Part shown: piece by piece, positions 7,001 to 60,401 of the stretch
How positions within the stretch are numbered: the stretch's first letter is position 1
How the letters are laid out: every line of letters begins with the position of its first letter
Assembly (NCBI GenBank): GCA_022823365.1
Contig: JAJDXG010000040.1
Coordinates: 1-64,000, forward strand
DNA: 64,000 nucleotides
Direction: 5' to 3'
Source: Gemmatimonadota bacterium
Lineage (GTDB): Bacteria > Gemmatimonadota > Gemmatimonadetes > Longimicrobiales > Gaopeijiaceae
Notes under the pieces: model-generated
Seen by the model: the letters and a program-made list of their open reading frames with translations, nothing else
What the model was told of the DNA's origin: nothing
Database searches by the model: none
Position numbers and translations under genes: made by a program

Positions 7001-10000
7001 CCGCAACAGGCGCTCGAATGCCATGAAACCCTGTTCAGGCGTGAACCAGCCAGTGCCGGAGGCCTCTCGCCGCCCGGCGATCCGTTCACGCTGCTCCTCC
7101 GCCTCACCCAGTCCCGACCACGCACCCCAGGCAATGGCTTGCCCGGGAAGCCCAAGCGCACGCCGGTGGGCGGCGAGCTGATCGAGGAATGCGTTGGCGG
7201 CCGCATGGTTGGCCTGGCCTGGATTGCCCAGGACTCCGGCGACGCTGGAGAACAGGACGAAGATGTCCAGATCACGTTCCATCGTCGCACGGTGAAGATG
7301 CCAGGCCCCCAGCATCTTCGGCCACAGCACGGTCTGGAAGCTCTCCCAGCTCTGGTTCCCGAGGGCGGCGTCCGACAGCACGCCGACGCTGTGGATGACG
7401 CCGGCGAGCGGCGGCAGCGTCCCGTCGATCCGGCTCAGCATGTCATCGAGCGCGGCCGTGTCCGTGACGTCCGCAATCTCCACCTCGATCCTGCAGCCGC
7501 GGGCGCGCAGCGCCTCGATCTCTTCTTCCGCCGCCGCGTCGGGCGTCCGGCGACCGTTCAGCACGACCGATCCCGCGCCGCGCTCGGCGAGCCATTCGGC
7601 GAGGGCCAGGCCAATGCCGCCCAACCCGCCCGTCACCAGATACGTCCCATCCCGCCGCAGCCGTCCTCCCGTGAGCGGCGGCGTCGTGAGCACGATCTTG
7701 CCGATGTGCCGTGCCGCGCGCATGTAGCCCATCGCGGCGCTCGTTTCGGCGAAGGGCCATATGGTGTGCCTGAGCGGTTCCAGCTGGCCTGTTGCGATGC
7801 GTGCCAGCACATCTCTCAGGGCCGCGCCCGGCGCCGCGGGGTCGTGCTGCTTCAGGGTGTAGAGATCGAGGATCGCGTAGGTGACATCGGGCCGCAGCGC
7901 CGCCATCTCGTCCTCGCTCAGGATGTCCCGCCTGGCGAGCTCCACGAAGCGGCCGCCCTGCGCGAGACAGGCAAGGCTCGCCTCGATGAAGCCCTCGCCC
8001 GTCAGGCTGTTGAGAACGACGTCGACACCGGCGCCGCCCGTTGCATCGAGGATATCCTGGCCGAACGCGGTCGAGCGGCTGTCGAACACGTGCTCGACGC
8101 CAATCGAGCGGAGATACTCACGCTTGCGCGCGCTCGCCGTCGCGAACACCTCCGCGCCCGAAGCCCGAGCCAGCTGAATGCCCGCAAGCCCGACGCCGCC
8201 CGCGCCGGCGTGGATCAGCACCCGGTCCCCGGCCTTGAGCCCGGCAAGCTCATAGGACAGCACGCAGGTGACGAAGACCGAGGGAATCGTGGCGAGCGCC
8301 GTCGCCGGCACGTTCGGCGGCACCAGCGCCACAAGCTCCTCCCGCGTCACCACTTCCTCCCCGAACGTGCCGAACGCGAATCCGGCCACGCGATCGCCCA
8401 CGGAGACGGTGGTGACGTCGGACCCGGTCTCGACGATCCGCCCGCACAATTCCTCGCCGAGCGATCCCTCCTCCTCGACAAGGCCCATGGCCCGGAACAC
8501 GTCGAGGAAGTTGAGCCCGCAGGCCTCGACTTCGACCCGCACCTCCTTCGGCTCCAAGGGGCGCGGCGACAGCGGCTCGATCCGCAATGTCTCGATCGCC
8601 CCGCCCTCGCCTGGCGCCAGCACCCAATCTGCGTGCTCCGGCAGGGCGAGGCGCTGCACACCGCCGCCCGCCCGGACGAGCCGGGCCGTCTGGCGGCGCC
8701 CCTGCCGATGCGCAATGTGGTTCTCCGAATCAGGGAACAGCAATTCGTCCGCGAGGACCGCCTGCGGCTGCGCTGCTTCGGCGTCGAGATCGAGCATCCG
8801 CGGTTGCAACTGGGGCGCCTCCCGCGCCACCACCTTCCCGAAGCCCCAAAGGGGGGCGCCGGCCAGTTGCCCGGTCCGTTCCCGTTCGAGCACCTGCGCC
8901 CCCCGGGTGACGAACCACACGCCCTTGTCGGGCACGGCATCCGCGTCCGCGATGCCCTGCACCAGCGCGAGGGCGCTGGCCGCGGCCCGTTTTGCATCCG
9001 CCGCGAGGTCCGCGGTCGTCGCCTGCGCTCCGTGGCCGTCCTGCGCCACGAGATGCACCACGCCGGCGAAGGGCACATCAGGGGACAGGCCTTCGATGAG
9101 CGATCGCCACGACTCGCGCCGCTCAATGTCGACCGGTGCCGCAATGATCGCGGCCTCGCTCTCCGCCGCCGCGACCTCCGGATCGTCGCCCGCCAGCACG
9201 ACCCGCTGATTCTGTGCCGCCAGTTGCGCCGCCAGCTCCGCGGCCACGCCGCCCCGGTCGGCGGCCAGGACCCAGACGCCCTCCGGCAAGTCGATCTCGG
9301 CCGGACCCTGCGCCACGATCACCCCTCGATCCGGCAGACCGGCCACTTCCTGCAGGTCCAGGCCGAGAACCTCCGATTCGGCAAACCCCGTATCGGCAAG
9401 CGCTCGACGCCACACCTCGGGCCCCGCGAGAGCGTGGTCCGTGCGGTAGCGATCGTCGAAGCGCCACCATCCATCCAGCTGCCCGAATATCAGATCCATC
9501 CAGCCCCTGCCGCGCTGGTTTTCGAGCGCCACCAGCAGCCCGGAGGGCGCGAGGAGCGTCCTGCAGTGGGCAAGCGTCTCATCCAGATGGCGGGTGGCGT
9601 GCAAGACGTTGGCCGCGATTACCAGGTCGTAGCCGTGGGCCTCGAAGCCCTGGTCCACCGGGTCCTTCTCGATGTCGAGCACCCGGTAGTCGATCGAGGC
9701 ATCCCCGGCGCTGAAGCGTGCCTCTGCCTCCGCGAAGAAGCCCGCGGAGATGTCGGTATACATGTAGTCGCACCGTCCCGCCGGAAGCTCTGGCAGGACG
9801 TATTCGGTCGCCGAGCCGATCCCGGCGCCGACCTCCAGCACACGGAGGCGCCGGTCCGCCGGCAACTCGTCCACGAGCGTGCGAACCACCTCGCCCAGCA
9901 TCCGGTTTGCCGCGCGCCAGACCGCCGCCCGCCGATAGAGATCGGCCGCCGTCGGCTCCGCATCACCGAACAGCAGCGACAGCGGGTCCGCATTGCCGCG

Positions 10001-13000
10001 AAGCACCTCGGGCAAGGCGCCGGCACAGCGCCGAAACAGCCCGATCTCGTTCGTCGCGTGCGGGAACCGCCCCGCTGTCTCGCTCAGAAACGCTTCGACG
10101 TCGGGCGGCATTCGATCCGGCAGCGGCTCGTCGGCTCCGATCGTTACGACGAAGCCCTCGTCCTTCGGCTGCAACACGCCTGAACGAGCCAGTATCGCGA
10201 GCATCCGGCGCAACAGATTCAAGTGCTCGGGCAGGACTTCCAGGCGCACGCACAGCTCTTCGGGGTCGACGACCTCGCCCGCCCTGCGCTCCCACCCCAG
10301 TGCTTCGAGGGCTGAAAGCGCGTAGCACCACGACACCCGCTCCATAACCCCCTGCAGGTCGGTCTCGTCCGCGACCTCGACTCCCTCGTCAGCCAGATAA
10401 CCGGAGAACGGCTTCGAGCGGGAGGCCGCGGCCGACGGACTGGGGAGGAAGTCCGCCGCCGGCATGCCCGGCGGCAAAGCGCGGTCCCGCCATACGACCT
10501 CGTAGAGCAACTCCTCCAACCCCTCCACGGCGGGGAGCAGCGCACTCCGGGTCGCCCGCTTCACCGTGTACCCGATCAGCGTCCCGATCCGGGATCCACC
10601 GAGGTCGTAGAGGGTGATATCCGAGCTCAGCACTTCGGGGATTCCGGTGCCCGCGCCGTCCGGCGCCTCCCTCATGCGGACATGGCAGAACAGCCGCTCC
10701 GGCAGCTGTTCCGGCACCGAGAGGCGCTCCCACCCGAAGGGCAAATAGGTGACGTCGTCGTCGGACCCGAAGGTCTCGCGGGCTGCACCCATCACTTGAA
10801 AGCACCCGTCCAGGACGAGCGGATGAAACGCCAACCCGCCGCTGTCGGCCGAGTCCGGCAGGGATACATCGCCCAAAGCTTCGCCCGGCCCGGCCCAAAG
10901 CGCTTCCAATGTGCGGAAGGAGGGGCCGAGCTCGATCCCCACCTCGTCCTTGGCGCGGTAGTAGGCCGGAAGATCCACCGGCGCCAGATCCGTCCTGAGC
11001 CGTGCGAGATCCGGCGATGCGGCGAGCGGCGGATCCGCACCGGCGCCGGTCGAGACCCGGCCCTCCGCGTGCAGCGTCCATTCCTCGTCGGCGGCACCCC
11101 GGCTCAGAATCCGGACGCGGCGCGATCCGTCCTCGGCGGCATCGTCCAGCAGCACCTGCAGCCGCCGACCCTCTTCCTCGCTTCCGTCTCCACCGTCCCG
11201 CTCCGGGAAGACAAGCGCGCTCTGCATCTGGAAGTCTTCGACGACCGCCGGACCGGGGCCCTCCATGGTGCAGGCCGACGCGGCCATCGCGCCGTGGAGT
11301 GCGCCGGGAGCCACCACCCGGTCGAACACGCGGTGGTCGCCCAGCCATGCCGGGTCGGAGGGAAACAACTCGGTGTCGAAGCTGATCTCGCCGCTGGCGG
11401 ATTCGTGGCGGCTGCCGAGGAGCGGATGATCGGCGCTCGAGCGCCTCCGTCTTGGCGCGTCGATCCAGTGGCGGTCGCGGCGGAACGGATACCCTGGCAG
11501 CGAGATTCGGCGCCGCGACTCGCCGGCGAAGAGCCCGTCGAAGCACAGCGGCAGCCCCGCGTCGTACGCTCCCGCGACCGCCGCGAAGAAGGCGTCTTCG
11601 GCCTCCGTTGCCGAAACGTTGCGTCCAGGCCGCTTGAGACTCGACAGCGCCACGGGAGGCTCGGGGGTCGCTGCCGACGCGGGCCAGGCGAGCGTGGTCA
11701 TGGGCGCGAGCACCGCGTGCGGACCGATCTCCACGACCGCGTCCACCCCCAGTCCCGCCAGCGTCTCAACGCAGGCGCGGAACGCGACAGGTGCACGCAT
11801 CTGCCGCCGCCAGTACGCCGCGTCCAGCGCCTCGCCCGGACCGACCGTCCGTCCGGTGAGATTGCTGATGAAGGGAAGCGAAGGTGGCGCAAAGGCGACC
11901 CGCGAGAGAGCTTCCTCCAGATCGTCCAGAGCCGGCTCGATCATGGCGCTGTGGTAGGCGGGACTCTTCCGGAGCCGCGCGACCCGAATCCCCGCCGCCT
12001 CCAGACGCTCGAGGATCGCGGCGACCTCCGCCGCCGGACCGCTGATGACCTGATGAGCGCCATTGTCGGCGGCGATGCAAAGGCCGACGCCGCGGCAGGC
12101 CGCATTGTGCTCGTCCAGCGCCTCCGCGACGTGAGTGGCCGGCGCGAACACCGCGCCCATCGCGCCTTCGCCGGGAAGGGCGCCGACCAGCTCTCCCCGC
12201 ACCGCTGCAAGGCGCAGGCCGTCCTCCAGGCCGAACACGCCCGCGGTATGGGCCGCCGCGATCTCGCCCAGGCTGTGTCCCAGCACCACGTCCGGCCGAA
12301 TGCCGAGGCTTGACCACAGCGCCGCGAGGGCGCATTCGAGTGCGTAGATCGCGGGCTGCTTCCACTGCGGATCGTCCAGGTCCCCCGCGGCCGCAGGGCG
12401 ACCGAACATCACGTCGAGCAGCGAGGCGTCACGCTCTCGCCGGAGCACTTCGTCGCAACGATCGAGTACCGCGCGCACTACCGGCTCGCTCGCATAGAGC
12501 CCCGCGCCCATGCCCGGCCACTGACTGGCCTGTCCGGTGTAGGCGAAGGCGATCTTCCGTCCCGCCCCTGGCCGGGGAGACTCCGTTGGCGGACCCTGTT
12601 CAGGCGAGACAAGCGCCTTCAGCCTCTCACGCAACGACTCCGCGTCCCGGAACACCACGCCTGCCCGGTGATCGAAGTGACTGCGCCCCACACCCGCCGT
12701 CCAGGCCATGTCCGCAAGAAGCGCTTCATCCGCGCCGCTCATGGCGGATTCCTTCCCCACTCCTTCGTCGACCCAATCGAGATACCGACCCGCCAACTCG
12801 CGGAGCGCCTCTTCGGACTTGGCGGAAAGCGGCAGAATACGTGTCACGCGGGTAGCGAGTCCTCCCTGTCGCGGCGCAAGCGACGGCATCGCATTCGCGC
12901 TCTCCTCCGCCGGCGGGACGGCGACGGGCAACGCCGGCCCGACGGGCCACCGTCGGTCGTTCGGCCCCCCACCCTCCGAGGCGCCGTCGGCGGGTTCGTG

Positions 13001-45873: not shown

Positions 45874-48800
45874 CTATCGGAATCTGATCCTTCCGCGAAC
45901 GCCCACCGTGTGGTGTGCTCCGGCGAGCCCGCTCTCGCGCCGCGTGCCTTCGAGGCGCAATCCGACATCCGCGCCCAGGTCGTAGCGTACGCCGCTCGAG
46001 AAGGCACGCATTCCGCTCTCAGCCAGGTAGAAGCCGCTGTAGGGCGTCCCTTGGAAGCCGCGGATGCCGTAGGCGATCTCGCCGTCCACGTTGGGGCCCA
46101 TGCCCAGGTCGGGGCCGCCCACGGCGTCGTGCACCCCGCGCTCCCAGAGCTGGCTCACCCCGCTCGTGTAGTCGCCGTAAGACGGCGCCACCCGGATCGA
46201 GAGCCCCTCGCCGCGAGCCGCAGGATCGAACATGAGCGTGCCGCCGAGACCCCATTCCTCGTAGCCGTCGCGCGCCGAGATCACGAACCTGCCGCGGCCC
46301 TCCGCGGTCAGTCCCAAGCCGGAGTTCGTATAGCGGAGTCCGCCGCCGACTTCGGCGCTGGCGCCGTTCACGCCGTCGCCGTTGTCGTAGCGCATCCCGC
46401 CCTCGAGCACGAACGCCATCTCCTGCCCCTCATTGGCGCGAAGGGCCTGCGTCAGCTCCAGCGCGAGCTTGCCGCGCTGCATGCTCAACGTGACCTCTTC
46501 GATCTGCTGGCTGGCATCGACCATGACCTGGCCGGCCCAGCCCTCGGCCTTGAGGCGGACGCCGCCCGAGCCTCTCGTGAGCAGTTGGTAGCTGGCGCCT
46601 CCCGCCCCGGTCAACATGCTTGCCGGGCTGGTGCGGAGTCCTTCGCGCACGTCATCGACCTCGATGTCGCCCCGGCCGAATCCCGCCGAACCCCACAGCG
46701 AGGTGCCCGGTGTTCCCGAGAACCATGCCACGTAGGGATGCACGCTGGTCATGGTGGCACCGTACGTGCCGGTCACCGCGCTCGCGCCGGTCCTGTCGGT
46801 GAAGTCGAAGGAGCCCGAGGAATACGAGCCCGCGACGCCCGCCAAGATGTCCGGCCCCACACGCACATCCACGCCCACGTGGGCGCTCACCATGTTGCCC
46901 TTCCAGTCGACGCCGGTCGCGCCGGGTTCGCCGAGGTGGTGGTACTCGCCGGCGCCCCAGCTCGCCAGTTGCGTGCCCGTGGCGGACTGCTGCGGCGCGG
47001 CGATGGCCCCGAACGGCATCGTAAAGGAGGTGCCGCCGAAGAGGGCGGCCAGGCCGGCCTGGTCGCCCTGGGCGATCCCGAGGCCGCCGGCGCCCGGTGC
47101 GGACAGGCTGGCAGCCATCGACGTTAGCCCGTTCGTCGCCACGCGCTGCTCCATGCCCATCCCTCTGGCCACGGCATCGACGCGCCCCGCGATCGCCGAG
47201 ACGGTGCTTGACGTCATCGCCGCGGCCACGTGCGGCAGGACGCGCGTGTTCAGGCGCCCTGCACGCTGCAACGGGTCGTCGGTCGCGGCCGAAGCGCTCG
47301 CCGAAGCTGCGCCCGTGCCCGCCCGGTTGATCGCCGCGACGCGGTAGTGGCGCGTGCTGCCCGGCAGCAGGCCGGTGTGCGAGAAGGTGGTGACCGTTGA
47401 CTCGGTGTTGGTCACCAGGTCTGACCAGATGGCGGCGTCTTCCGAGACCTCGATGCGGTAGCCGGTGATGCGCGCACCGCCATTGTAGGCGGGCGCGAGC
47501 CAGAACAGGTCGATCTGCGTGGGCGTGACGTCATTGGCGGTCAGCCCGGTGGGCGCGTCGGGCACGGTCGCGTCGGTGGTGGAGCCAGCGACCCGCGACG
47601 CGTTGCCCACGCCGACCCGGTTGACCGCCGAGACACGGTAGTGGCGTGTCGAGGCCGGCGCGAGCCCGGTGTGCGTGTAGACGGTGGCCGTGGTGCGCGT
47701 GTTGGCCACCAGGTCTTCCCAGCTCCCGCCCCCGTCGGCCGAGACCTCGATGCGGTAGCCGGTGATGCGCGCCCCCCCGTTGTCCGAGGGCGCCTGCCAG
47801 GAGAGGTCGATCTGCGAGGTGCCGACGGCCTCGGCGCTCAGACGCCGCGGCACCCCCGGCACGGTCGCGTCGGTGGTCGCGCGGGCCGTGTTCGACCACG
47901 CGCCGTCCCCCGCGAGGTTCCTCGCGGCGACCCGGTAGTGCCGCGTGGTGGCAGGCTGCAGGTTCACGTCGGAGAAGGTCGTCGTCGTCGAGTTGGTGTT
48001 GCGGCGGAGGATGGTCCAGGTAGCGCCCCCGTCGTCGGAGGTCTCGATCCGGTAACCGATGATCGAGACACCGCCGGTGTAGCGGGGCGCGTTCCACGAA
48101 AGGTCGATGCGCGCCGTGCCCACCGCCCGCGCCGTCAGCCCGGTCGGGGCCCCGGCTTTGTCCGCGTGCGTAATGGCCGCCGCCGGGAGGTCCGGGGGCG
48201 ATGGCGCGAACTCCCCTCGGCCCCTGCGGTTGATGGCCGCCACGCGGTACTGGTACCGGGTCACCGGCTCCAGGCCGGTGTCCGTGAACGTGGTTGCCGT
48301 CGTCCCCGTGTTGGAACGGTGGGTGATCCAGTTGTTGTCGTTGGGCCCGATCCTCTGGATGGCATAGCCGGTGATTCGCTCTCCGCCGTCGGTCTCCGGC
48401 CGGTCCCAGGCGAGGAGGATGCCGTGCGGCCCGGTGCTGTGCGCGCGCACGTTCTGCGGCGGCCCGGGAGGCGCTGAGTTGGTGGTGCCTTCGGCCACGT
48501 TGGAGAACGCCCCGAAGCCCTGGCTGTTGCCCGCGGACACGCGATAGAACTGGGTGCTGGCGGGAGCGAGGCCGGTGTGCACGTAGGTGGTGCCCGTGCC
48601 GCCGGTGCTGGCCACAAGGATGACCCAATCCGAGGTAATGGTGGAACGCCACCAGATGCGGTAGCCGGTAATCGGACTCCCGCCATCGTCCGTCGGGGCA
48701 CTCCAGGAAAGGACGATCTGGTCTGTTCCCCGAACCCCGCCCGGCACCGCCCTCAGGCCCGTGGGCGCGCCCGGGGTAGTGGTGGCGGTGGTCGCCTGGG

Positions 48801-50157
48801 CAACGCTCGACCACGCGCCCCTGCCCGCGCGGTTGATCGCCGCGACGCGGTAGTGGCGGGTGGTGGCGGGCCTGAGGCCGTCGTGGATGTACCTGGTTGT
48901 GGTGGACTCGGTGTCGGTTTCGAGCGGCGTCCATCCCCCGGTCCCCGTGCTCGAGACTTCGATGCGGTAGCCGGTAATCGGAGCCGAGCCGCTGGAGGAG
49001 GGGGCGGTCCAGCTCAGCTCGATGACGGACGTCCCCCGGGCCCGCGCCCTCAGGCTCCGGGGCGCTTGCGGGAGTGGGTCCGCGGTGGTGGCGCTGGCAA
49101 CGTCGGAAGGGTCTCCGGCTCCGTTGAAGTTGATCGCCGAGACTCTGTAGTGGCGCGTGGCTCCGGGGGACAGGCCCGTGTGGCGGTAGGTGGTGTTGGT
49201 GCTCCGGGTATCGGTCTCCAGGTACCTCCAGGTGTCGCCGGCGTTCGTCGATACCTCGATCACGTACCCGGTAATGCTGGTTCCGCCGTCCGAGGTCGGC
49301 GGATCCCAATCGAGTTCGATCGCCGTAGGTCCGTCGGCGGCCGCCGTAAGGTTGCGCGGCTCGCCCGGCACCGCGGTGCGGGTCTGCCCGGTCACGTTTC
49401 GCACTGCCCTCGTGAAGCTGAAGGCGAGATTGCCGACCCGATCCCTGATCGCGTTGACGCCTCTGTCGTCGTAGAACACCCGAACCAGGTATTCCCTTTC
49501 CACGGGGGTGTCCAGGGTCAGAAACACCTCTCGCGCCACCACATCATCGACGGCGGACAGGGGCGTGACTCTGTACGGACCGCCCGTGCTGAACGACACC
49601 GAGAAGTCGCCCACCGACGGCACGAAGGTCTCGTCGAGTTCTTCGTCGAAGCCGAGGATGAGCTTGTTGCCGTCGATCTTCGCGTCCTGCACCTCAGGCG
49701 CCCGATTGTCGGCGTCGAAGGTGATCGCCCGACCGATGTTCCCCTCCCCGCCGGTGTTCCGCGCCACGCCCGAATGGACGGTGATGACCACCGGGCCCTG
49801 ATAGTTCGCCTGCGTCGTCATGTCGATCGAATAGCTGCGCCCCGAACCGCGCAGCGGGGGCACCTTGACGGCTCCTTCCACCAGGATGTCATCGATATCG
49901 AAGCCCGTCACCGCCTCCGAGAAACGGATGATGACCTGGAATGCTTCGTTGGCCCTGGTCCAGTCGCTCGTAATGGTAGTGATGGGGGGAGCGGCCGCGC
50001 CCAGCCTGTCACCTCGCGCGACCGGCCGCGCCACCTCGTGCGAACCATCCGGAGACGGTTCCTGGGCGCGCGCGCCGATGGATGGAACCAGCGACGCGCA
50101 TACCACTGCGGCGGTCAGGAGGGAACGGGCTGCTACACCAGGCTGGTTCCGAATCAT
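45874..50157 (-). CDS. Autotransporter-like surface protein with seven fibronectin type III domains
   Basis: 1427 residues. Signal peptide at residues 1-32 ending GARAQ. Residues about 58-255 are two Ig-like/SwmB-type domains (ITSDWTRANEAF, FSEAVTGFDIDDI, LILGFDEELDE). Seven fibronectin type III domains of about 95 residues follow from residue 264 to about 945, each with ITGYRIE and RHYRVAAINR motifs. A helical linker leads to a C-terminal beta-barrel of about 360 residues (from WGAGEYHHLG) that ends in GVRGRIRFR with terminal aromatic-Arg, as in autotransporter barrels. It is probably displayed on the outer surface as an adhesin. Two hairpins lie in the upstream gap, so it may be regulated separately from the giant repeat-protein gene before it. 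Confidence 0.88.
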   Translation of the reverse strand: MIRNQPGVAARSLLTAAVVCASLVPSIGARAQEPSPDGSHEVARPVARGDRLGAAAPPITTITSDWTRANEAFQVIIRFSEAVTGFDIDDILVEGAVKVPPLRGSGRSYSIDMTTQANYQGPVVITVHSGVARNTGGEGNIGRAITFDADNRAPEVQDAKIDGNKLILGFDEELDETFVPSVGDFSVSFSTGGPYRVTPLSAVDDVVAREVFLTLDTPVEREYLVRVFYDDRGVNAIRDRVGNLAFSFTRAVRNVTGQTRTAVPGEPRNLTAAADGPTAIELDWDPPTSDGGTSITGYVIEVSTNAGDTWRYLETDTRSTNTTYRHTGLSPGATRHYRVSAINFNGAGDPSDVASATTADPLPQAPRSLRARARGTSVIELSWTAPSSSGSAPITGYRIEVSSTGTGGWTPLETDTESTTTRYIHDGLRPATTRHYRVAAINRAGRGAWSSVAQATTATTTPGAPTGLRAVPGGVRGTDQIVLSWSAPTDDGGSPITGYRIWWRSTITSDWVILVASTGGTGTTYVHTGLAPASTQFYRVSAGNSQGFGAFSNVAEGTTNSAPPGPPQNVRAHSTGPHGILLAWDRPETDGGERITGYAIQRIGPNDNNWITHRSNTGTTATTFTDTGLEPVTRYQYRVAAINRRGRGEFAPSPPDLPAAAITHADKAGAPTGLTARAVGTARIDLSWNAPRYTGGVSIIGYRIETSDDGGATWTILRRNTNSTTTTFSDVNLQPATTRHYRVAARNLAGDGAWSNTARATTDATVPGVPRRLSAEAVGTSQIDLSWQAPSDNGGARITGYRIEVSADGGGSWEDLVANTRTTATVYTHTGLAPASTRHYRVSAVNRVGVGNASRVAGSTTDATVPDAPTGLTANDVTPTQIDLFWLAPAYNGGARITGYRIEVSEDAAIWSDLVTNTESTVTTFSHTGLLPGSTRHYRVAAINRAGTGAASASASAATDDPLQRAGRLNTRVLPHVAAAMTSSTVSAIAGRVDAVARGMGMEQRVATNGLTSMAASLSAPGAGGLGIAQGDQAGLAALFGGTSFTMPFGAIAAPQQSATGTQLASWGAGEYHHLGEPGATGVDWKGNMVSAHVGVDVRVGPDILAGVAGSYSSGSFDFTDRTGASAVTGTYGATMTSVHPYVAWFSGTPGTSLWGSAGFGRGDIEVDDVREGLRTSPASMLTGAGGASYQLLTRGSGGVRLKAEGWAGQVMVDASQQIEEVTLSMQRGKLALELTQALRANEGQEMAFVLEGGMRYDNGDGVNGASAEVGGGLRYTNSGLGLTAEGRGRFVISARDGYEEWGLGGTLMFDPAARGEGLSIRVAPSYGDYTSGVSQLWERGVHDAVGGPDLGMGPNVDGEIAYGIRGFQGTPYSGFYLAESGMRAFSSGVRYDLGADVGLRLEGTRRESGLAGAHHTVGVRGRIRFR

Positions 50158-53200: not shown

Positions 53201-55097
53201 GCACGTCGCCCCCACCGGCATCGGTGGTGACGGTGGCGCCGCTGACGCTCACGTCGACGTTCAAGTTGACGATGTCGTTGTCGTTCGTGCCCGCGGTTGC
53301 GAACATCTGCGGATCCCACGACACGGCCGTCATGCCGTCGGCCACCTCGTAGCCCTCCACGGCGACGCCCGCATGCACCATGTTTCCGCTGGTGCCGGCA
53401 CGCGCGACCTTGATCGCAACCGAGCCGTCTTCGCCGGTCTCGCCGCTGGCGATCTTGGTCTCGCCGGCCGCGTCCGAGAAGAGTGTGACCATGGCGCCGG
53501 GAACCGCGTCGCCGGTGTCGTCGCCGTGCTTCAGCGACACCGTGAAGTTCACGGTCGTGTGCGTGATGTCGAACGGGATCGCTTGCGAAGCGGCCTCGCC
53601 GACACCAAGGGCTACCGAGTAGCCTTCGCCCGGTCCGCCGTACGCGATGTCGTTGGCCGAGAGCGCCGCCGCAACCGTGGCGTTGATGAGCACGACCAGC
53701 TGGTACGGGCCGGCCTGCAGCCCCTCGAACGAGAACGCACCCATGGCGTCCGTGGCCCCGAGCCGCTGCTCGTTGACGCCCGGGCCCACCAGCGCCACCG
53801 GAATCCCGGCGTGCGCGAGCGGATGCTCGCCCTCGTCGTACATGTCGTTCTTGGTCGCCTCGTCGAGGAACACCATCCCCGACACGCTCGCGGTGCGCGC
53901 GTGCGCGCCCTCGAAGCTCACGATCGCCGACTCGTCGTCGCCGACCGTCACGTCCTGGCTCATCGACTCGAACACGTACGCGTCGCTCTCGACCGCGATC
54001 GTGACCGTGTAGTCGCCCGCCGCCAAGCCCGCGAAGGAGTACTGGCCACCGTTTGCGGTCATGGCGGTGCGGCTCTCATCACCACCCGCCAGCGTGACCT
54101 CGATGCCGTCGAGACCCATGCCTTCGACGCTCACCCGACCGCTGATGCCGGAGGTGCGGAGCAGGACGCCGGTGAACGACACCGTCCCCGTCTCGTCGAG
54201 ATCCACGCTCACGTCCTGCGAGGTGGCGGCGAACTCGTAGTCCCTGGGGTCAAAGTCCGCGATCTCGACCGTGTAGTCGCCGGGGCGCAGGTCCTCGAAC
54301 CGGAACATGCCGTCGCCGTCGGTCAACATCGTGTAGCTCTCGTCGGCCGGTCCGCCGCTCAGAGTCACGGTAACGCCGGCAAGCCCCTCGCCCTCGATCA
54401 CCACCTGGCCCTCGACCGCGGAGGTGCGGATGAAGTGGCCCGTGAAGTCGGCGCTGCCGACCTCGCCCACGTCGACCTCGATCTCAAGGCTCACCGTCTC
54501 GAACGACACGTCCTCCGGGAAGTCCGAGATCGTGACGGTGTAGGTGCCGGCCCGGAGCCCGGTGAAGGCGAAGCCGCCGTCCTCGGCGGTCTCCATGGTC
54601 TCGCCCATGGCGTGCTCGCCGCCGAGCGTGACCGTCACGCCCACCAGCGTCTCGGGCTGGCCGTCGCCTCCGCTCATCATGGCGTCGGCCGCTACCACGT
54701 TGCCGACCACCGCTGAGGAGCGGATGTACTCGCCGGCGAAGTTGAGTTGCACGTTCTGACCATCGGTCGCGATGGTCGCGGACTGCGTCACCTGGGCGAA
54801 CGTCGCGTCCTCGGGAAAGCCGCTGATGGTGACCGTGTAGGTCCCGGCTTCCACGCCCGAGAAGGCGAAGCTGCCACCCGACCCCGTCGTCGTGGTCGCG
54901 CCCGACGACAGAGTGGCGGTGATGCCGCTGGCGGCCGTCCCTTCGATCGTCACCGTCCCGGAGATGGTTCCCACGGGAGTCGGCGGCGGGGGCGGCTCCA
55001 CAGGCGGCGGAGTGCCCTCGTCGCAGTGCCCTCGGATAGGCAAAGGTGGTGCCAGTTTGGAAACCTTCATATTTGACAACCAGTTACGGACTATCAC
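50289..55097 (-). CDS. Giant repeat protein with carboxypeptidase-regulatory-like/SpaA-type beta domains
   Basis: About 1602 residues. After a Pro-rich segment (PPPVEPPPPPTP) come at least four units of about 85-100 residues with the pattern GxVxxEGxxLxGVTVTL...GxFxFxGLxAGxYTVTI, followed by a longer fifth unit. Three more such domains occur in the second half (VIYGRIIDSDDF, DITGRVTD, GTITGAVEG). The C-terminus is a different Ser/Thr/Ala-rich beta region ending in ARAASGG. These domains resemble carboxypeptidase-regulatory and SdrD/SpaA folds of surface proteins. No hydrophobic signal peptide is visible; HCDEG near the N-terminus looks like a lipobox Cys without its hydrophobic stretch. The start is uncertain: GTG 55097 with AGGAG, ATG 55070 or GTG 55112. 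Confidence 0.85.
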   Translation of the reverse strand: MIVRNWLSNMKVSKLAPPLPIRGHCDEGTPPPVEPPPPPTPVGTISGTVTIEGTAASGITATLSSGATTTTGSGGSFAFSGVEAGTYTVTISGFPEDATFAQVTQSATIATDGQNVQLNFAGEYIRSSAVVGNVVAADAMMSGGDGQPETLVGVTVTLGGEHAMGETMETAEDGGFAFTGLRAGTYTVTISDFPEDVSFETVSLEIEVDVGEVGSADFTGHFIRTSAVEGQVVIEGEGLAGVTVTLSGGPADESYTMLTDGDGMFRFEDLRPGDYTVEIADFDPRDYEFAATSQDVSVDLDETGTVSFTGVLLRTSGISGRVSVEGMGLDGIEVTLAGGDESRTAMTANGGQYSFAGLAAGDYTVTIAVESDAYVFESMSQDVTVGDDESAIVSFEGAHARTASVSGMVFLDEATKNDMYDEGEHPLAHAGIPVALVGPGVNEQRLGATDAMGAFSFEGLQAGPYQLVVLINATVAAALSANDIAYGGPGEGYSVALGVGEAASQAIPFDITHTTVNFTVSLKHGDDTGDAVPGAMVTLFSDAAGETKIASGETGEDGSVAIKVARAGTSGNMVHAGVAVEGYEVADGMTAVSWDPQMFATAGTNDNDIVNLNVDVSVSGATVTTDAGGGDVLAGWAITVVSGDPTDSTSLMPVEGAPEMLDDEGNAAFMTTVMPTDLPVSYAISLADDQDDAMDGGESFGAEPVTHLHTGLKLAGTVDAGMLEAAFTTQTLMVYVHYERDHVHGYTGNVIEGDVRASTDHFDLDIRYIDDAGRSRSFTKDEWDEVANSQFAADSETASGSLIHRGHGKTGLAVFSHLPADANVVVSAGKADSDANIRILDPDELATYRNLDMNGVMGGAFGDMGGTSHTVRLCPLMAVDPTDQNHDECSSFAYVNTHEVTGQAWKRLVETDADGDGFEYTDLRHVTGTTVSVDPVEGKNLGDDSGSFTAASTNSRATPLDDRKQFDFGQMAEGVYKVSVPAGWTTKQGVPGSLTSLSSEFRHTGTLQIDVVPATGVIYGRIIDSDDFAVVGATVDVNGEQATTDSKGRYIVEGFGPVTGFDGRPTQDIYRNKRIVVVAASMEDFKVAADTMLWNGSHWDIPDGDDRWEDSNPAGVMEMTPANAPFMHDMQLGGVTATVDITGRVTDILTGDGIAAVEVKVDGVAPLNKATRGQYAGKLVTGADGTYTARIETKNRGQTASVSVAKDHYHFPVDASPVLADGNSPAVVNFQGYQNGTITGAVEGPSGRALAGVTVTATSTAEGATTPADMTTTNSVGQFTLSVPPVSTYRIEATLGNHVFTYPNNNQTIFAGPGQTADFGRIKAATAGALNLSAVRERVDDDETTDDVDESTQQWGTTILVKYDADADNMPEGFAAPTYTIQTNTGTDGAWTDATGTAVRNADDTEDLPGQFTIPTPAATDGGDGEFMVRVVTTADETTPSTPPAPYSHTSAEVTVAAIDPSASGVGARRQAAVDSDEAAATGNFIQASWSAVTNDNSDFRLVAEVESGTLGATVWVVLQGTVAATDRATVSADISTAGGLSTTTAVANGAGTTVVVTEDELAAAINIAVESVQGTAGAGDDAPKWVRSAAVPLAARAASGG

Positions 55098-55180
55098 TCC
55101 GCTCCTGGACACATGGTCGGTCGCGAAATCCTCGAATTATCGAAGACGACCACTGTTTTCTGATACGAAAAAAGCGCCGT

Positions 55181-55210
55181 AATATATACGAATAAAACGA
55201 TGATTGTCTC
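55181..55210 (-). promoter_or_regulatory. Candidate promoter of the giant repeat protein gene
   Basis: On the minus strand GAGACA (55210-55205) and TATATT (55186-55181) are 18 bases apart in an unusually AT-rich stretch, about 85 bp before the likely start codon. Confidence 0.4.
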
Positions 55211-55269
55211 GAGCGGCATGCCCATAGTGCTTCGGGCCGCGGACGGAAACCATCAAACAGGCCGGTGCG

Positions 55270-55300
55270 ATACCCTGTAGGAATATAGGGGTAATACCCT
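55270..55300. promoter_or_regulatory. Candidate operator with three TACCC(C)T elements
   Basis: ATACCCT occurs at 55270-55276 and again at 55294-55300, and the inverted form TACCCCT (minus strand, 55293-55287) lies between them. The cluster sits in the divergent gap between the giant surface gene and the HTH gene, where a regulator would bind. Confidence 0.35.
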
Positions 55301-55379
55301 TTTTCCTGAAAGGCGCGACGGAACGGTGTTCCTGCCATATTCCGATAGTCGAGCGCAAACGGGCAAGGAGAGCCGCCTC

Positions 55380-55916
55380 GTGGAAGTTCCTGAGAGTTCC
55401 GGGAGGCCGAGCCGGGATCCGATGCACGGTCTCGGCTTGAGGCTGCTCTCCGACCCGTCCTTCAGACCGTCCGTCAGGGAAGCCATCAGCCGGGTTTGCG
55501 GCCTGCACGGCGACGCTGCCGCCGCGAGGTTCGTGCCGGCGAGTTCAGTTCGCCGACTGGCGGGGCAGGTCAACCTGGCCGCGTCGACGCTGCGCCAGTA
55601 CTGGAGAGAGGACCCGCCGCTCCGATGCCGTCTGAAGGAGTTCGTGAACTGGGCCGTCCTCCTCTGGGCCGTTCGCGCTCGCGCCGGGGCCGGCTGGGAG
55701 ACGGTCGCCGACCAGGTGGGGCTGCGGCGCCGCACGCTGGAAATCAACGTCAAGCGGATGGCCGGATGCACACTCGCGGCTGCGGCCAGGGATCCGGAAC
55801 GCGTCGTCGGGCGATTCGATGAGTGGGTCGATTCGGTTTGGGAGCCCCGCTCCGCGAACGGATCAGGGACGCATGATCGGGTCTCCGCGCCGGCATCCGG
55901 CGCGCGGGCGACGTGA
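55380..55916 (+). CDS. Helix-turn-helix regulator-like protein
   Basis: 178 residues from the GTG at 55380, with AAGGAG nine bases upstream; GTG 55326 and ATG 55422 are alternatives. Residues about 55-85 look like a first helical DNA-binding element (SSVRRLAGQVNLAASTLRQYW). Residues about 95-150 look like an AraC-type helix-turn-helix (WETVADQVGLRRRTLEINVKRM). No transposase, HUH or serine-recombinase motif is present. It is divergent from the giant surface-protein gene, and its stop codon overlaps the start of the TnpB-like gene (GTGA), so the two are translated together. DNA binding is inferred. Confidence 0.6.
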   Translation: MEVPESSGRPSRDPMHGLGLRLLSDPSFRPSVREAISRVCGLHGDAAAARFVPASSVRRLAGQVNLAASTLRQYWREDPPLRCRLKEFVNWAVLLWAVRARAGAGWETVADQVGLRRRTLEINVKRMAGCTLAAAARDPERVVGRFDEWVDSVWEPRSANGSGTHDRVSAPASGARAT

Positions 55917-56959
55917 CCGTGGACGCATCGGCTGCCCGGCGCTACGTCGGCTGGCGGTGCAGGCTCTACCCGAATCCTGCGCAGGACTCGGGGCTGCTCC
56001 GGTGCAGAAACGGTCTGCGCGAGCTCGCGAACGAATTGCTCGCAGCCTCTCAGCTCAGGTACGGAGAGACCGGACGGCGCTTGTCTCTGACCGAGATGCG
56101 GGCCTTCGCGCGCGAGTGGCAGCGGCGCCCGGAGCACCGGAACTCTCCCGCCAGCGCCACCTACCGGATCGCCAGCGATCTCGACCGGGCCTTCCGCACC
56201 TGGTTCGCCAAACCCGACAGACGCGGGCGCCGCGGGTTCCCCCGGATCAAGGCCATCGGACGGGAGCCCGGCATCTACTTCAGCAACCAGGGTATCCGCT
56301 TCGAGGGCAGCCGGGTGTGGCTGCCCAAGTTCGGCTCGGTGCGCTGGAAAGGCGGGAGCCTCCCTCGGGGAAGGCTCAAGGGGCCTGCCGGACGAAAGAC
56401 CCTCGGTCTGCTCTCGGCACGGGCCTGGCTGGATGCGGGCAATCGCTGGATGCTCTCGTGCCTCTTCGAGTGCGCGCCGCTCACGCCCATCGAACCGAGG
56501 ACGGACAGGGCTGCGGTCCGCCAGAACGGCAGCGAGATCAGCGTGACGGTCGACGGGGAGGCCGTCCACGTGGTGAGGGAGAGCAGGGCGCTCCGGAACG
56601 CGCGACGCCGCCTGGCCAGGCTGGAGCGGCGGCTCGAGCGATGCGCGTTCAGGTCCGAAGGCCGCAAGCGCGCTCTGGCCCTCATGCGCAACCAGGCGCG
56701 CAAGGTGAGAAACCACCAGGCGGATCTGCAGCACAAGACCACGACCGGCGTCGTGCACGACGCCCGCGAGATCGAAGTCGAAGGCGCGAGCTCGGAACTG
56801 CTGCGCCAGCTCGAATACAAGGCGGAGTGGCACGGCCGCCGACTGAAGGTACGGCGAGGCCCGCCGAAACCGGGGACCGGCAAGCCCCGACGCGCGCGGA
56901 GACCGGGGAGCCGGTCGCAGAAACGCGAATCGCGGACGCGAAGGCCGAAAGCTCTGTAG
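55913..56959 (+). CDS. TnpB/OrfB-like protein lacking the zinc finger and last RuvC segment
   Basis: 348 residues. The N-terminal half is clearly TnpB-like: YVGWRCRLYPNPAQ, ELLAASQLRYGETG, FPRIKAIGR and LPKFGSVRWKGG. The helical bridge LRNARRRLARLERRLER and the segment NHQADLQHKTTTGVVHD are also kept. Degeneration is specific. The first RuvC site GxDxG reads RTDRA (Asp198). The second site is IEVEGASS, after which about 30 residues are missing. The CxxC zinc finger and the final RuvC aspartate are absent, and the protein ends in a basic tail. It should therefore not cut DNA. It may be a domesticated RNA-guided binding protein like the TldR repressors, or simply a decayed transposon gene. It is coupled to the HTH gene and ends 23 bp from a convergent luxR-type gene. 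Confidence 0.75.
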   Translation: MTVDASAARRYVGWRCRLYPNPAQDSGLLRCRNGLRELANELLAASQLRYGETGRRLSLTEMRAFAREWQRRPEHRNSPASATYRIASDLDRAFRTWFAKPDRRGRRGFPRIKAIGREPGIYFSNQGIRFEGSRVWLPKFGSVRWKGGSLPRGRLKGPAGRKTLGLLSARAWLDAGNRWMLSCLFECAPLTPIEPRTDRAAVRQNGSEISVTVDGEAVHVVRESRALRNARRRLARLERRLERCAFRSEGRKRALALMRNQARKVRNHQADLQHKTTTGVVHDAREIEVEGASSELLRQLEYKAEWHGRRLKVRRGPPKPGTGKPRRARRPGSRSQKRESRTRRPKAL

Positions 56960-56982
56960 CCGTCTGCGAGGGCCGGAACGAA

Positions 56983-58134
56983 TCAGGGGCTGAAGTCCGG
57001 AAAGCCCTCCAGCGACAACACGCGCCGCACAAGATCCGCCTGACCCGATATGCCCTGTTTGCGGAAGATGTTCTGTATGTGCCAGCGTACGGTGCCTTCG
57101 CTGCGTCCCGTGCGCGCGGCGATGTCACGCGTGTGTTGCCCGGAGGCCACCATGACCGCCAGCCGGCTCTCGGCCGGGGTCAGGTCGAGCGCCGCCTGCA
57201 CGAGGCGGGCGTCGATGCTGGGCCGGCGCTCGGGGTCGGCGACCAGCACGAGCGCGGCGACCTGCCGGGCGCGGAAGTCCCGCTGGCGCGCCGCCACCGG
57301 GGTAACGTGCACGACCACGTTCGTGCGGGATGACGAACGCTTGATCGTCATCGAGCCGGACGATCCGGGGCCGCCCAGCCGCGGCAGCGCCTGAGCCAGC
57401 AATTGCTGCAACTCGCCGTTGTCGCGGGGCGTAGTGGCGCTCAGGAACCCGTCCCGGTCCGACAGCACTTCCGCCTCTCGCAGCAGACGGGAGGCCCGGT
57501 CGTTCGCCGCAATGATGCGCGCGTTCCGGTCGAGTTGGATGACGCTGCAGCGGCTCTCGTCGAGCAGCGCGATGAGCGAGCGTCCCAGCGCCCCCGCATC
57601 GGTCAGCGTCTTGCGCACGCGCACGAACTGGCGCACATGCGGCAGCAGGCGCCGGACCGCGGCAAGCTGAGACGAACTCCAGCCTCCCGGTTCCAGGGAG
57701 TCCGCGAGACTCAGTACGATGCTCGATCCGCCCGGCCCGTCCAACCGCACGTTGAGGCCGTTCTGCATCCCGGTCCTGCGCCTCGCCTCGGTGTACGCCG
57801 GCGACAGTCTCTTCTCGCGGTCCGTGTACAGTTCGGCGGTGGACGCCAGCGCTCCATCCGGCAGACGGCCGATTCGGGGAATGCTCTCGTCCCGTTCCCA
57901 GTACTGGCTGAAGTACTCCCTTTCGAGGTCCTCGCGGCGTTGGCCATCCTGGCACAACTGCATGAACAGGAAGTGCGCATCAGCCTGGGCGCGCCCGTCG
58001 GCGAACGCCAGGGCGCTGCCGCTTGTCCCGCTGATCTCGTTGATCAGCAGCGCCGCCTCCGACCAGCGCGCCTTGCCGAGCGCGGCCTCCTGCAGCGACA
58101 TCACGACGCGCTCGAACGGATCCGGTGGGTTCAT
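56983..58134 (-). CDS. LuxR-type helix-turn-helix transcriptional regulator
   Basis: 383 residues. The C-terminal 60 residues are a GerE/LuxR DNA-binding domain: LTPAESRLAVMVASGQ, then IAARTGRSEGTVRWHIQNIFRK. The N-terminal 300 residues have a GAF/PAS-like character, with DRNARIIAANDRASRLL typical of a PAS core. No receiver or acyl-homoserine-lactone domain is obvious. It is probably a signal-responsive regulator. It is divergent from the hybrid kinase gene and convergent with the TnpB-like gene. Confidence 0.88.
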   Translation of the reverse strand: MNPPDPFERVVMSLQEAALGKARWSEAALLINEISGTSGSALAFADGRAQADAHFLFMQLCQDGQRREDLEREYFSQYWERDESIPRIGRLPDGALASTAELYTDREKRLSPAYTEARRRTGMQNGLNVRLDGPGGSSIVLSLADSLEPGGWSSSQLAAVRRLLPHVRQFVRVRKTLTDAGALGRSLIALLDESRCSVIQLDRNARIIAANDRASRLLREAEVLSDRDGFLSATTPRDNGELQQLLAQALPRLGGPGSSGSMTIKRSSSRTNVVVHVTPVAARQRDFRARQVAALVLVADPERRPSIDARLVQAALDLTPAESRLAVMVASGQHTRDIAARTGRSEGTVRWHIQNIFRKQGISGQADLVRRVLSLEGFPDFSP

Positions 58135-58299: not shown

Positions 58300-58433
58300 A
58301 TTGGTGCGAACACGCCCGACCCCTTCCTGTATGGTGCAAGAGATGATAATTCGGGCTGCATTTGCGGCGTTTTGGTGATGCGACGGTTGTATCCGGGGAC
58401 AGGACGACGGACGAGCTCCGGGGGGACGGGCCG

Positions 58434-60401
58434 GTGACAGGGCACCCGGACGCGCTGAGAATCGAGGAGCGCGTCTCGCAACTCTGCAACGCGATCCTGT
58501 GCATCAATGCAAGCCTGGACCTTGAGACCGTCCTGCAGGAAGTCGTCGACAGCGCCCGCGCCCTGACCGGTGCGCGCCATGGCCTGATCGCCACCGTCGA
58601 CGACGGGGGCGAACCCGGATCCTGGGTCGTCTCCGGCCTGACCCGGGAGCAGTTGCGGCAGCTCGAGGAGTGGGAAGATGCGCTCCGGGTCTTCGAGCAC
58701 TTCCGCGACCTTCCGGGTGCGGTGCGGATCGGGGATCTGCCGACCTGGCTCCGTTCGTCCGGCTTTCTGCCCGTCGCCATTCCATCCAGGACGCTGCAGG
58801 CCACGCCGATCCGTCATCGGGGCGTCTATGCCGGCAGTGTCTTTCTCGTCGGAAAGGACGGGGACCGCGAGTTCACCCGCGAGGACGAGGAGGTTCTCGT
58901 GCTGCTGGCGTCGCAGGCGGCGACGGCGATCGCCAATGCCCGCACCTTCCGCGAGGAGCAGAGTGCGCGCGCGAAGTTCCTGGGGATCGTGACGCACGAG
59001 TTGCGCGCGCCGCTGGCCGCCATCAAGGGCTCGTCAACCACGGTGCTCGCGGCCTCCAGGCGCTTCTCTTCCACCGAAATGCTGCAGTTCTTCCGGATCA
59101 TCGACGAACAGGCCGACAACATGAGCGTCCTCATGGGCGACCTGCTCGATGCGGGGCAAATCGCGACGGGCACGCTGTCGATCTGGTCCGAAGCCTCCGA
59201 CGTAGGGGCGCTGATCGACCGGGCCAGGAACACGTTCCTGAGCGCCGCCGGCCCGCATGGCGTGCGCGTCGACGTTCCTCCGGACCTGCCGGGCGTGCTG
59301 GTGGACCGGCAGCGCATTGTGCAGGTCCTGGGCAACCTCCTCTCCAATGCGGCGAAACACTCTCAGGCATCGTCCCCGATAGAAGTGAGAGCCCGGCGGG
59401 ACGGTGTGCACGTCGCGATCTCGGTCTCGGACAATGGCAGGGGCATCCCGCCCGCCCGGCTCGCGCGATTGTTCTCCGGGCAGGCCGGTGCGGGCGACGG
59501 AAGGCGCGGTGTGGCGACGGGCCTGGGGCTCGCCATCTGCAAGGGGCTGGTGGAGGCGCACGGAGGGCGCATCTGGGCGGAGAGCGACGGCGAGGACCGG
59601 GGCGCCCGCTTCACGTTCACCGTCCCCATCGCCGCGGAGGCCGGCGGCGACGTGACGGCGCCGGAGTCCTACGCGCGGCAACGCTCCCACCGGGGTGGGG
59701 AGGCGACGCGCATCCTGGTGGTGGACGACGACCCGCAGGCGCTGCTCTTTGTCCGCGATGCGCTCACCACGGCAGGGTACGCCGTGCTCGAGACGGGCGA
59801 GCCACGGGAACTGTCGAGCATCATTCGCGCGGAGCGGCCCCGCCTGGTCCTGCTCGATCTGATGTTTCCGGGGACCGACGGCATCAAGCTGATGGAACAG
59901 GTTCCGGACCTGGCCGACCTGCCGGTCATCTTCATCTCCGCCTACGGACGGGACGAAACGATCGCGAAGGCTCTCGAAGCCGGGGCCGCCGACTACATCG
60001 TCAAGCCGTTCTCGGCGACGGAATTGACGGCGAGGATCCGGGCGGCGTTGCGCAGGCGCGCCGAGCCCGCATCCTTCGTGCTCCGAGAGCTGGCCATCGA
60101 CTATGATACGCGCCGGGTGACGTTCGCCGGCGAGCCGCTGGAGCTGACAGCCACCGAGTACGAGCTGCTGCGCGTGCTCTCGACCAACCCCGGACGGGTG
60201 CTGACCTACCGCGCGCTTCTGCGCCTCGCCTGGGGCACCCGCTACCGGGGTTCCGTCAACCCGAGGCTGGTGCACGCCGTCGTGAGGAGGCTGCGCGACA
60301 AACTGGGCGAGGACGGGGCTCGGCCGGCCTACATCATCAACGAACGAAGGGTGGGCTACCGGATGCCGGCACCGGGCGACCGCCCCACGGGGCCTGCCTA
60401 G
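58434..60401 (+). CDS. Single-chain GAF-histidine kinase-receiver-winged-helix signalling protein
   Basis: About 655 residues from the GTG at 58434, which has a G-rich ribosome site eight bases upstream; TTG 58362 is the alternative. Order of domains: GAF about 10-175. HisKA with the phospho-His in FLGIVTHELRAPL (His188). HATPase about 300-405 with NLLSNAAKH, DNGRGIPP and GLGLAICKGL. Receiver about 420-535 with DDDP, the phospho-Asp in LLDLMFPG and Lys in IVKPF. OmpR-type winged helix about 545-650 with LTATEYELLRVL and HAVVRRLRDKLGE. A complete two-component pathway including DNA output thus sits in one soluble protein without membrane segments. The GAF domain probably senses an internal signal. 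Confidence 0.92.
   Translation: MTGHPDALRIEERVSQLCNAILCINASLDLETVLQEVVDSARALTGARHGLIATVDDGGEPGSWVVSGLTREQLRQLEEWEDALRVFEHFRDLPGAVRIGDLPTWLRSSGFLPVAIPSRTLQATPIRHRGVYAGSVFLVGKDGDREFTREDEEVLVLLASQAATAIANARTFREEQSARAKFLGIVTHELRAPLAAIKGSSTTVLAASRRFSSTEMLQFFRIIDEQADNMSVLMGDLLDAGQIATGTLSIWSEASDVGALIDRARNTFLSAAGPHGVRVDVPPDLPGVLVDRQRIVQVLGNLLSNAAKHSQASSPIEVRARRDGVHVAISVSDNGRGIPPARLARLFSGQAGAGDGRRGVATGLGLAICKGLVEAHGGRIWAESDGEDRGARFTFTVPIAAEAGGDVTAPESYARQRSHRGGEATRILVVDDDPQALLFVRDALTTAGYAVLETGEPRELSSIIRAERPRLVLLDLMFPGTDGIKLMEQVPDLADLPVIFISAYGRDETIAKALEAGAADYIVKPFSATELTARIRAALRRRAEPASFVLRELAIDYDTRRVTFAGEPLELTATEYELLRVLSTNPGRVLTYRALLRLAWGTRYRGSVNPRLVHAVVRRLRDKLGEDGARPAYIINERRVGYRMPAPGDRPTGPA

What the first reader, a model, noticed from the sequence alone, without database searches (positions are those of the whole stretch)
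55380..56959. HTH protein translationally coupled to a TnpB-like protein that has lost nuclease parts, beside giant surface genes
The TnpB-like protein keeps the N-terminal binding region and bridge helices but lacks the zinc finger and third RuvC residue, has a changed first RuvC site, and has an internal deletion of about 30 residues after RuvC-II. It is an intact ORF in a GTGA overlap with an HTH gene instead of a TnpA transposase. Family knowledge: nuclease-dead TnpB-like repressors (TldRs) are encoded beside genes they repress, such as flagellin or transporter genes. Here the pair is divergent from a roughly 1600-residue surface protein gene and close to a fibronectin-repeat autotransporter. 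I infer a possible RNA-guided or HTH-guided switch for surface proteins. A paired HTH partner would be a new arrangement.
Basis: partly seen in the sequence, partly recalled or inferred. Interest (0 to 1): 0.8.

Follow-up and report, generated by a model that had tools for sequence, protein, structure and literature searches.

The report
Dead TnpB beside surface-protein genes
In bacteria from sponges, a DNA-cutting transposon protein has lost its cutting parts, kept its partner RNA scaffold, and been preserved beside genes for giant surface proteins, probably as a regulator, although the usual matching target for its guide RNA could not be found.

Summary
The 55913-56959 protein is a TnpB (fold and profile match ISDra2 TnpB) with RuvC-I Asp changed to Arg, RuvC-II Glu kept, ~30 residues deleted, no zinc finger and no third Asp. 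It belongs to one chromosomal clade of dead TnpBs in Palauibacter-type Gemmatimonadota (up to five loci per genome). These sit beside the same surface lipoprotein and/or FN3 autotransporter genes; ten TnpBs outside the clade do not. Protein and HTH partner are under purifying selection (dN/dS mostly 0.2-0.4). No Y1 transposase was found in 11 genomes. This supports domestication and a TldR-like protein-RNA complex. The guide-slot sequence matches no surface-gene promoter or paralogue beyond chance, and in one subclade a stable hairpin fills that slot. The HTH partner (AraC-type domain, normally with a receiver-like domain) occurs essentially in one subclade and is truncated here. The window copy is partly eroded: its surface gene lost its signal peptide and its guide slot runs into luxR. 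New variant of a known kind.

The parts
55380..55916 (+). HTH partner: AraC-type DNA-binding domain; the N-terminal receiver-like domain of full-length relatives (~287 aa) is missing
   Evidence: (dN/dS mostly 0.2-0.4)
55913..56959 (+). nuclease-dead TnpB-like protein, 348 aa
56519..56521 (+). RuvC-I position (Asp191 of ISDra2 TnpB) is Arg203
   Evidence: alignments
56780..56782 (+). RuvC-II Glu290 retained; ~30 residues deleted after it
56848..56986 (+). omegaRNA-like scaffold overlapping the tnpB 3' end, ending GAATCAG
56987..57006 (+). predicted guide slot, GGGCTGAAGTCCGGAAAGCC; runs into the antisense of the luxR 3' end after loss of a stretch present in L040/L042/L043
50289..55112 (-). 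giant surface protein gene (SURF), divergent from the pair; lipoprotein signal peptide and RBS deleted at 55025/55026 in this copy
45874..50157 (-). fibronectin type III repeat autotransporter-like gene (AT)
   Evidence: neighbours
55113..55379 (.). SURF/HTH intergenic region, conserved in sister loci
56983..58134 (-). LuxR-type regulator, convergent; conserved neighbour in orthologous loci
58362..60401 (+). hybrid GAF histidine kinase/response regulator; conserved neighbour

Best explanation
This is a domesticated, nuclease-dead TnpB that most likely still binds its omegaRNA-like scaffold. It was inactivated once in the ancestry of Palauibacter-type bacteria and kept with genes for surface lipoproteins and autotransporters, where the protein-RNA complex most likely acts as a TldR-like, non-cutting regulator of gene expression. 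Shown by sequence: loss of catalytic residues, a single clade, purifying selection, a conserved structured RNA, and association with surface genes. Inferred: that the complex forms, that it binds nucleic acid, and that it regulates the surface genes. In one subclade it is co-translated with an AraC-type regulator that is divergent from the surface gene, so the two proteins probably work on the same locus. How it finds its target is unknown. If a guide is used, it is short or acts on a site we did not find.
For: All 20 dead forms form one group against the other TnpBs, support 97/97. Surface-gene neighbours within about 6 kb in 24 of 30 deduplicated dead loci versus 0 of 10 TnpBs outside the clade, Fisher p 9e-6. 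dN/dS mostly 0.2-0.4 for both proteins, including window vs L031 at 0.29. Synonymous differences are 0.064 in the scaffold overlap versus 0.306 upstream. The RNA is intact where the protein tail is frameshifted, in L046/L047. 41 double-change cells versus 9.4 in shuffles. No Y1 transposase in 11 genomes. Fold of a TnpB-omegaRNA complex.
Against: No guide-target match beyond chance. The guide slot drifts between orthologues and has been replaced by luxR sequence in the window lineage. A stable hairpin fills the slot in the autotransporter subclade, p 2e-5. Some copies are decaying, e.g. L057 with a stop. Several surface-gene copies have no dead TnpB. No expression data.
Confidence: 0.55

Rival explanations
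1. Guide-less complex: the dead TnpB and its scaffold RNA act without a base-pairing guide, for example by binding and controlling the HTH-tnpB mRNA 3' end or by TAM-like DNA contacts alone.
For: The scaffold is nearly invariant while the guide slot drifts. In the autotransporter subclade a stable hairpin starts 3-5 nt after the scaffold in its strongest members (z to -5.6). No target match anywhere searched.
Against: The surface-protein subclade mostly lacks the hairpin. Guides as short as 6 nt can suffice in TldRs (PMC13418256), so missing matches are weak evidence.
Confidence: 0.2
2. Passenger: a dead TnpB carried along by duplication of surface-gene modules, without a regulatory role of its own.
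For: Copies are duplicated together with their neighbours, e.g. L034 and L040 about 15 kb apart on one contig. Some copies decay (L057, L065). The window lineage has lost the signal peptide, the HTH N-terminus and the original guide slot.
Against: dN/dS mostly 0.2-0.4 outside the RNA overlap, retention across deep divergence with one neighbour type, scaffold covariation.
Confidence: 0.2
3. Decaying IS605-type transposon remnant still able to move.
For: TnpB ancestry; copies often at contig ends.
Against: No Y1_Tnp in 11 genomes, no intact close copy, selection on the protein, orthologous positions shared by several species.
Confidence: 0.05

Closest known systems
TldR, TnpB-like nuclease-dead repressors (fliC- and csrA-linked clades; PMC13418256)
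   Same: RuvC inactivation, retained guide-RNA scaffold beside the gene, association with non-transposon surface-structure genes, a second regulator next to some clades (csrA there)
   Different: No guide match found here; hairpin in the guide slot of one subclade; AraC-type partner; linked genes are surface lipoproteins and FN3 autotransporters; chromosomal family in Gemmatimonadota, no close relative in viral contigs
IS200/IS605 TnpB with omegaRNA (ISDra2 TnpB, 8h1j/8bf8)
   Same: Overall fold, bridge helices, RuvC-II Glu, scaffold RNA overlapping the gene's 3' end
   Different: No catalytic triad, no zinc finger, no Y1 transposase in the genomes
Natural nuclease-dead Cas12f associated with sigma factors (from memory; only the dCas12f structures 9n9c/9n9m were seen)
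   Same: Dead TnpB-superfamily protein possibly coupled to a DNA-binding transcription protein
   Different: Partner here is AraC-type, not a sigma factor; the literature was not found here, so this is a lead only

Membership tests
TldR | TnpB homologue with inactivated RuvC triad | tested here: met
   Arg at RuvC-I, third Asp absent
TldR | guide-RNA scaffold conserved at the 3' end of the gene | tested here: met
TldR | stable association with non-transposon genes and loss of transposase | tested here: met
TldR | guide complementary to a promoter or ORF of a target gene | tested here: inconclusive
   searches found none beyond chance; 6-nt guides would escape the tests
TldR | RNA-guided transcriptional repression | not testable with these tools
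   needs RIP-seq, ChIP-seq and RNA-seq
Active IS605 TnpB element | intact DED triad and zinc finger | tested here: not met
Active IS605 TnpB element | Y1 transposase present in the genome | tested here: not met
   0 of 11 genomes

The most novel reading that the evidence does not exclude
A dead TnpB-omegaRNA complex that has lost its guide and regulates surface-protein loci together with an AraC-type partner, using the scaffold RNA without base-pairing to a target.
Probability: 0.18. Interest if true: 0.85.

Novelty: new variant of a known kind. Interest (0 to 1): 0.62.

Why it matters
It would extend domesticated TnpB regulators to an uncultured sponge-associated lineage and to surface proteins that may face the host. 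It offers a graded series, from full-length forms with one lost catalytic residue to truncated ones, for following how a nuclease becomes a regulator. The conserved scaffold without a recognisable guide raises a direct question: can such a complex act without a guide?

Tried and rejected
Guide searches: within each locus, between surface paralogues of one genome, against the SURF/HTH upstream region, and 16 nt with 2 mismatches in G000, G002, G004, G009 and G010. All were at chance. A 13-nt match inside a TonB-receptor-like gene of the own genome is expected about 0.1 times by chance and was not pursued. Rfam gave no relevant hit. The viral-contig scan gave only generic TnpBs. L058 is identical to L059 and probably a misbinned contig, so it is not counted as a second family. 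Foldseek on the HTH model gave only weak hits.

Full report
Observation. A Shine-Dalgarno-like AGGAG lies 8 nt before the 55380 GTG (sequence). Single-sequence family searches are weak (Pfam OrfB_IS605 5e-6; NCBIfam guided_TnpB 3e-21 but under its cut-off). A profile of the family reaches ISDra2 TnpB at E 4e-93, and the AlphaFold2 model (pLDDT 83) matches the TnpB-omegaRNA-DNA complex 8h1j at E 9e-21 with query TM 0.75. In those alignments the first catalytic Asp is Arg203, the RuvC-II Glu290 is kept, about 30 residues after it are missing, and the zinc finger and third Asp are absent.

Relatives. The window lies in a 3.8-Mb genome, G000, which holds one further copy at 54% identity. Of 196 related genomes searched, 24 have matches, some of them to intact TnpBs; the richest genomes hold about five dead loci. 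Named records place the close relatives in Candidatus Palauibacter, the BD2-11 clade and Gemmatimonadetes MAGs. Some records labelled Gammaproteobacteria or Vicinamibacteria carry near-identical or closely related loci; I take these labels as misnamed or misbinned, which is inference. No close relative was found in viral contigs.

One dead clade. In a tree of 42 TnpBs all 20 dead forms fall together, support 97/97. The tree is midpoint-rooted, so strictly it shows the group as one side of a branch. Within it, L056 and L059 are full length with a zinc finger but GVALG in place of GVDLG. The larger group to which the window belongs lost the C-terminal part. A third branch, L062/L067/L068, is only about 28% identical to the window protein.

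Neighbours. The surface protein gene (SURF) and/or the fibronectin-repeat autotransporter gene (AT) lie within about 6 kb of 24 of 30 deduplicated dead copies. They lie beside none of ten TnpBs outside the clade in the same or related genomes (Fisher p 9e-6). Caveats: the loci are related by descent, several contigs are short, and only eight of the ten outside TnpBs were checked to carry the RuvC-I motif. SURF is a multigene family, and several copies have no dead TnpB.

Selection. dN/dS upstream of the RNA overlap is mostly 0.23-0.38, and 0.29 for the window against its nearest relative. A few very close or very distant pairs give 0.5-0.6. The HTH gene gives mostly 0.17-0.39, with one short pair at 0.71. 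No Y1 transposase was found in 11 genomes.

RNA. The last ~110 nt of tnpB plus ~27 nt beyond it form a block of 139-145 nt, GGTACGGCGAGG...GAATCAG or ...ACTCAA, after which sequences diverge abruptly. Synonymous differences fall to 0.064 inside the block from 0.306 upstream. L046 and L047 carry a one-base change that shifts the protein tail but leaves the block intact. A covariance model finds the block at nearly every dead tnpB of the main group, with extra copies in L036/L037 and around L056 and a solo copy upstream of SURF in L217. On 28 distinct sequences 97.9% of cells pair, and 41 cells change on both sides against 9.4 in shuffles. That alignment was fitted to the model, so the counts lean toward the structure.

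Guide. The slot after the block should hold a guide if this works as a TldR. No match beyond chance was found in the same locus, in surface paralogues of the same genome, in the upstream region, or (16 nt, 2 mismatches) in five genomes. TldR guides of 6 nt have been reported to suffice (PMC13418256), so this does not exclude a short guide. In the autotransporter subclade the 45 nt after the block fold more stably than controls (p 2e-5), with a 12-14-bp hairpin starting a few bases after the block in L048 and L049. In the window and L031 the slot runs straight into the antisense of the luxR 3' end because a stretch present in L040/L042/L043 is missing.

HTH partner. Full-length relatives are about 287 aa with a receiver-like (beta-alpha)5 domain and an AraC-type DNA-binding domain (model pLDDT 69, so moderate confidence). 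The window form keeps only the DNA-binding part. The partner accompanies tnpB in the SURF subclade, usually overlapping it or within a few bases, and a distant form stands beside SURF in L062 with tnpB on the opposite strand. Related HTH genes also occur without TnpB beside hybrid kinases.

Reading. The evidence supports domestication and a TldR-like protein-RNA complex tied to surface genes. It does not show targeting, repression or switching. I rate regulation with an unknown guide or target at 0.55, a guide-less complex at 0.2, a passenger at 0.2 and a mobile remnant at 0.05.

Noticed in passing
window 55025/55026: The SURF gene has lost its lipoprotein signal peptide (MNRLKLLATATLMALTFTAC in L031) and RBS through a ~113-bp deletion between GTCGC repeats, so this copy may not be exported.
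   Followed up: partly
window ~54575-55025 and sister loci: The first ~450 bp of SURF are about 90-98% identical between most paralogues and species of the genus, while the rest drops to 60-90%, suggesting gene conversion or DNA-level constraint.
   Followed up: partly
L048 (G000:C13), both ends: A second dead TnpB copy behind an autotransporter, with an inverted near-identical repeat of its scaffold and downstream sequence at the other contig end.
   Followed up: partly
L036 9295-9435 and 11470-11610; L056 7680-9605: Two or three scaffold copies around one protein gene, with different downstream sequence.
   Followed up: partly
L217 471-647 (-): A solo scaffold copy about 200 bp upstream of a SURF start codon, on the SURF strand.
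   Followed up: no
G000:C14 (L250) 7130-10367: Two TnpB-free relatives of the HTH regulator beside a hybrid kinase homologue.
   Followed up: no
L058 and L059: Identical dead TnpB proteins in genomes assigned to different families, probably a misbinned contig.
   Followed up: no
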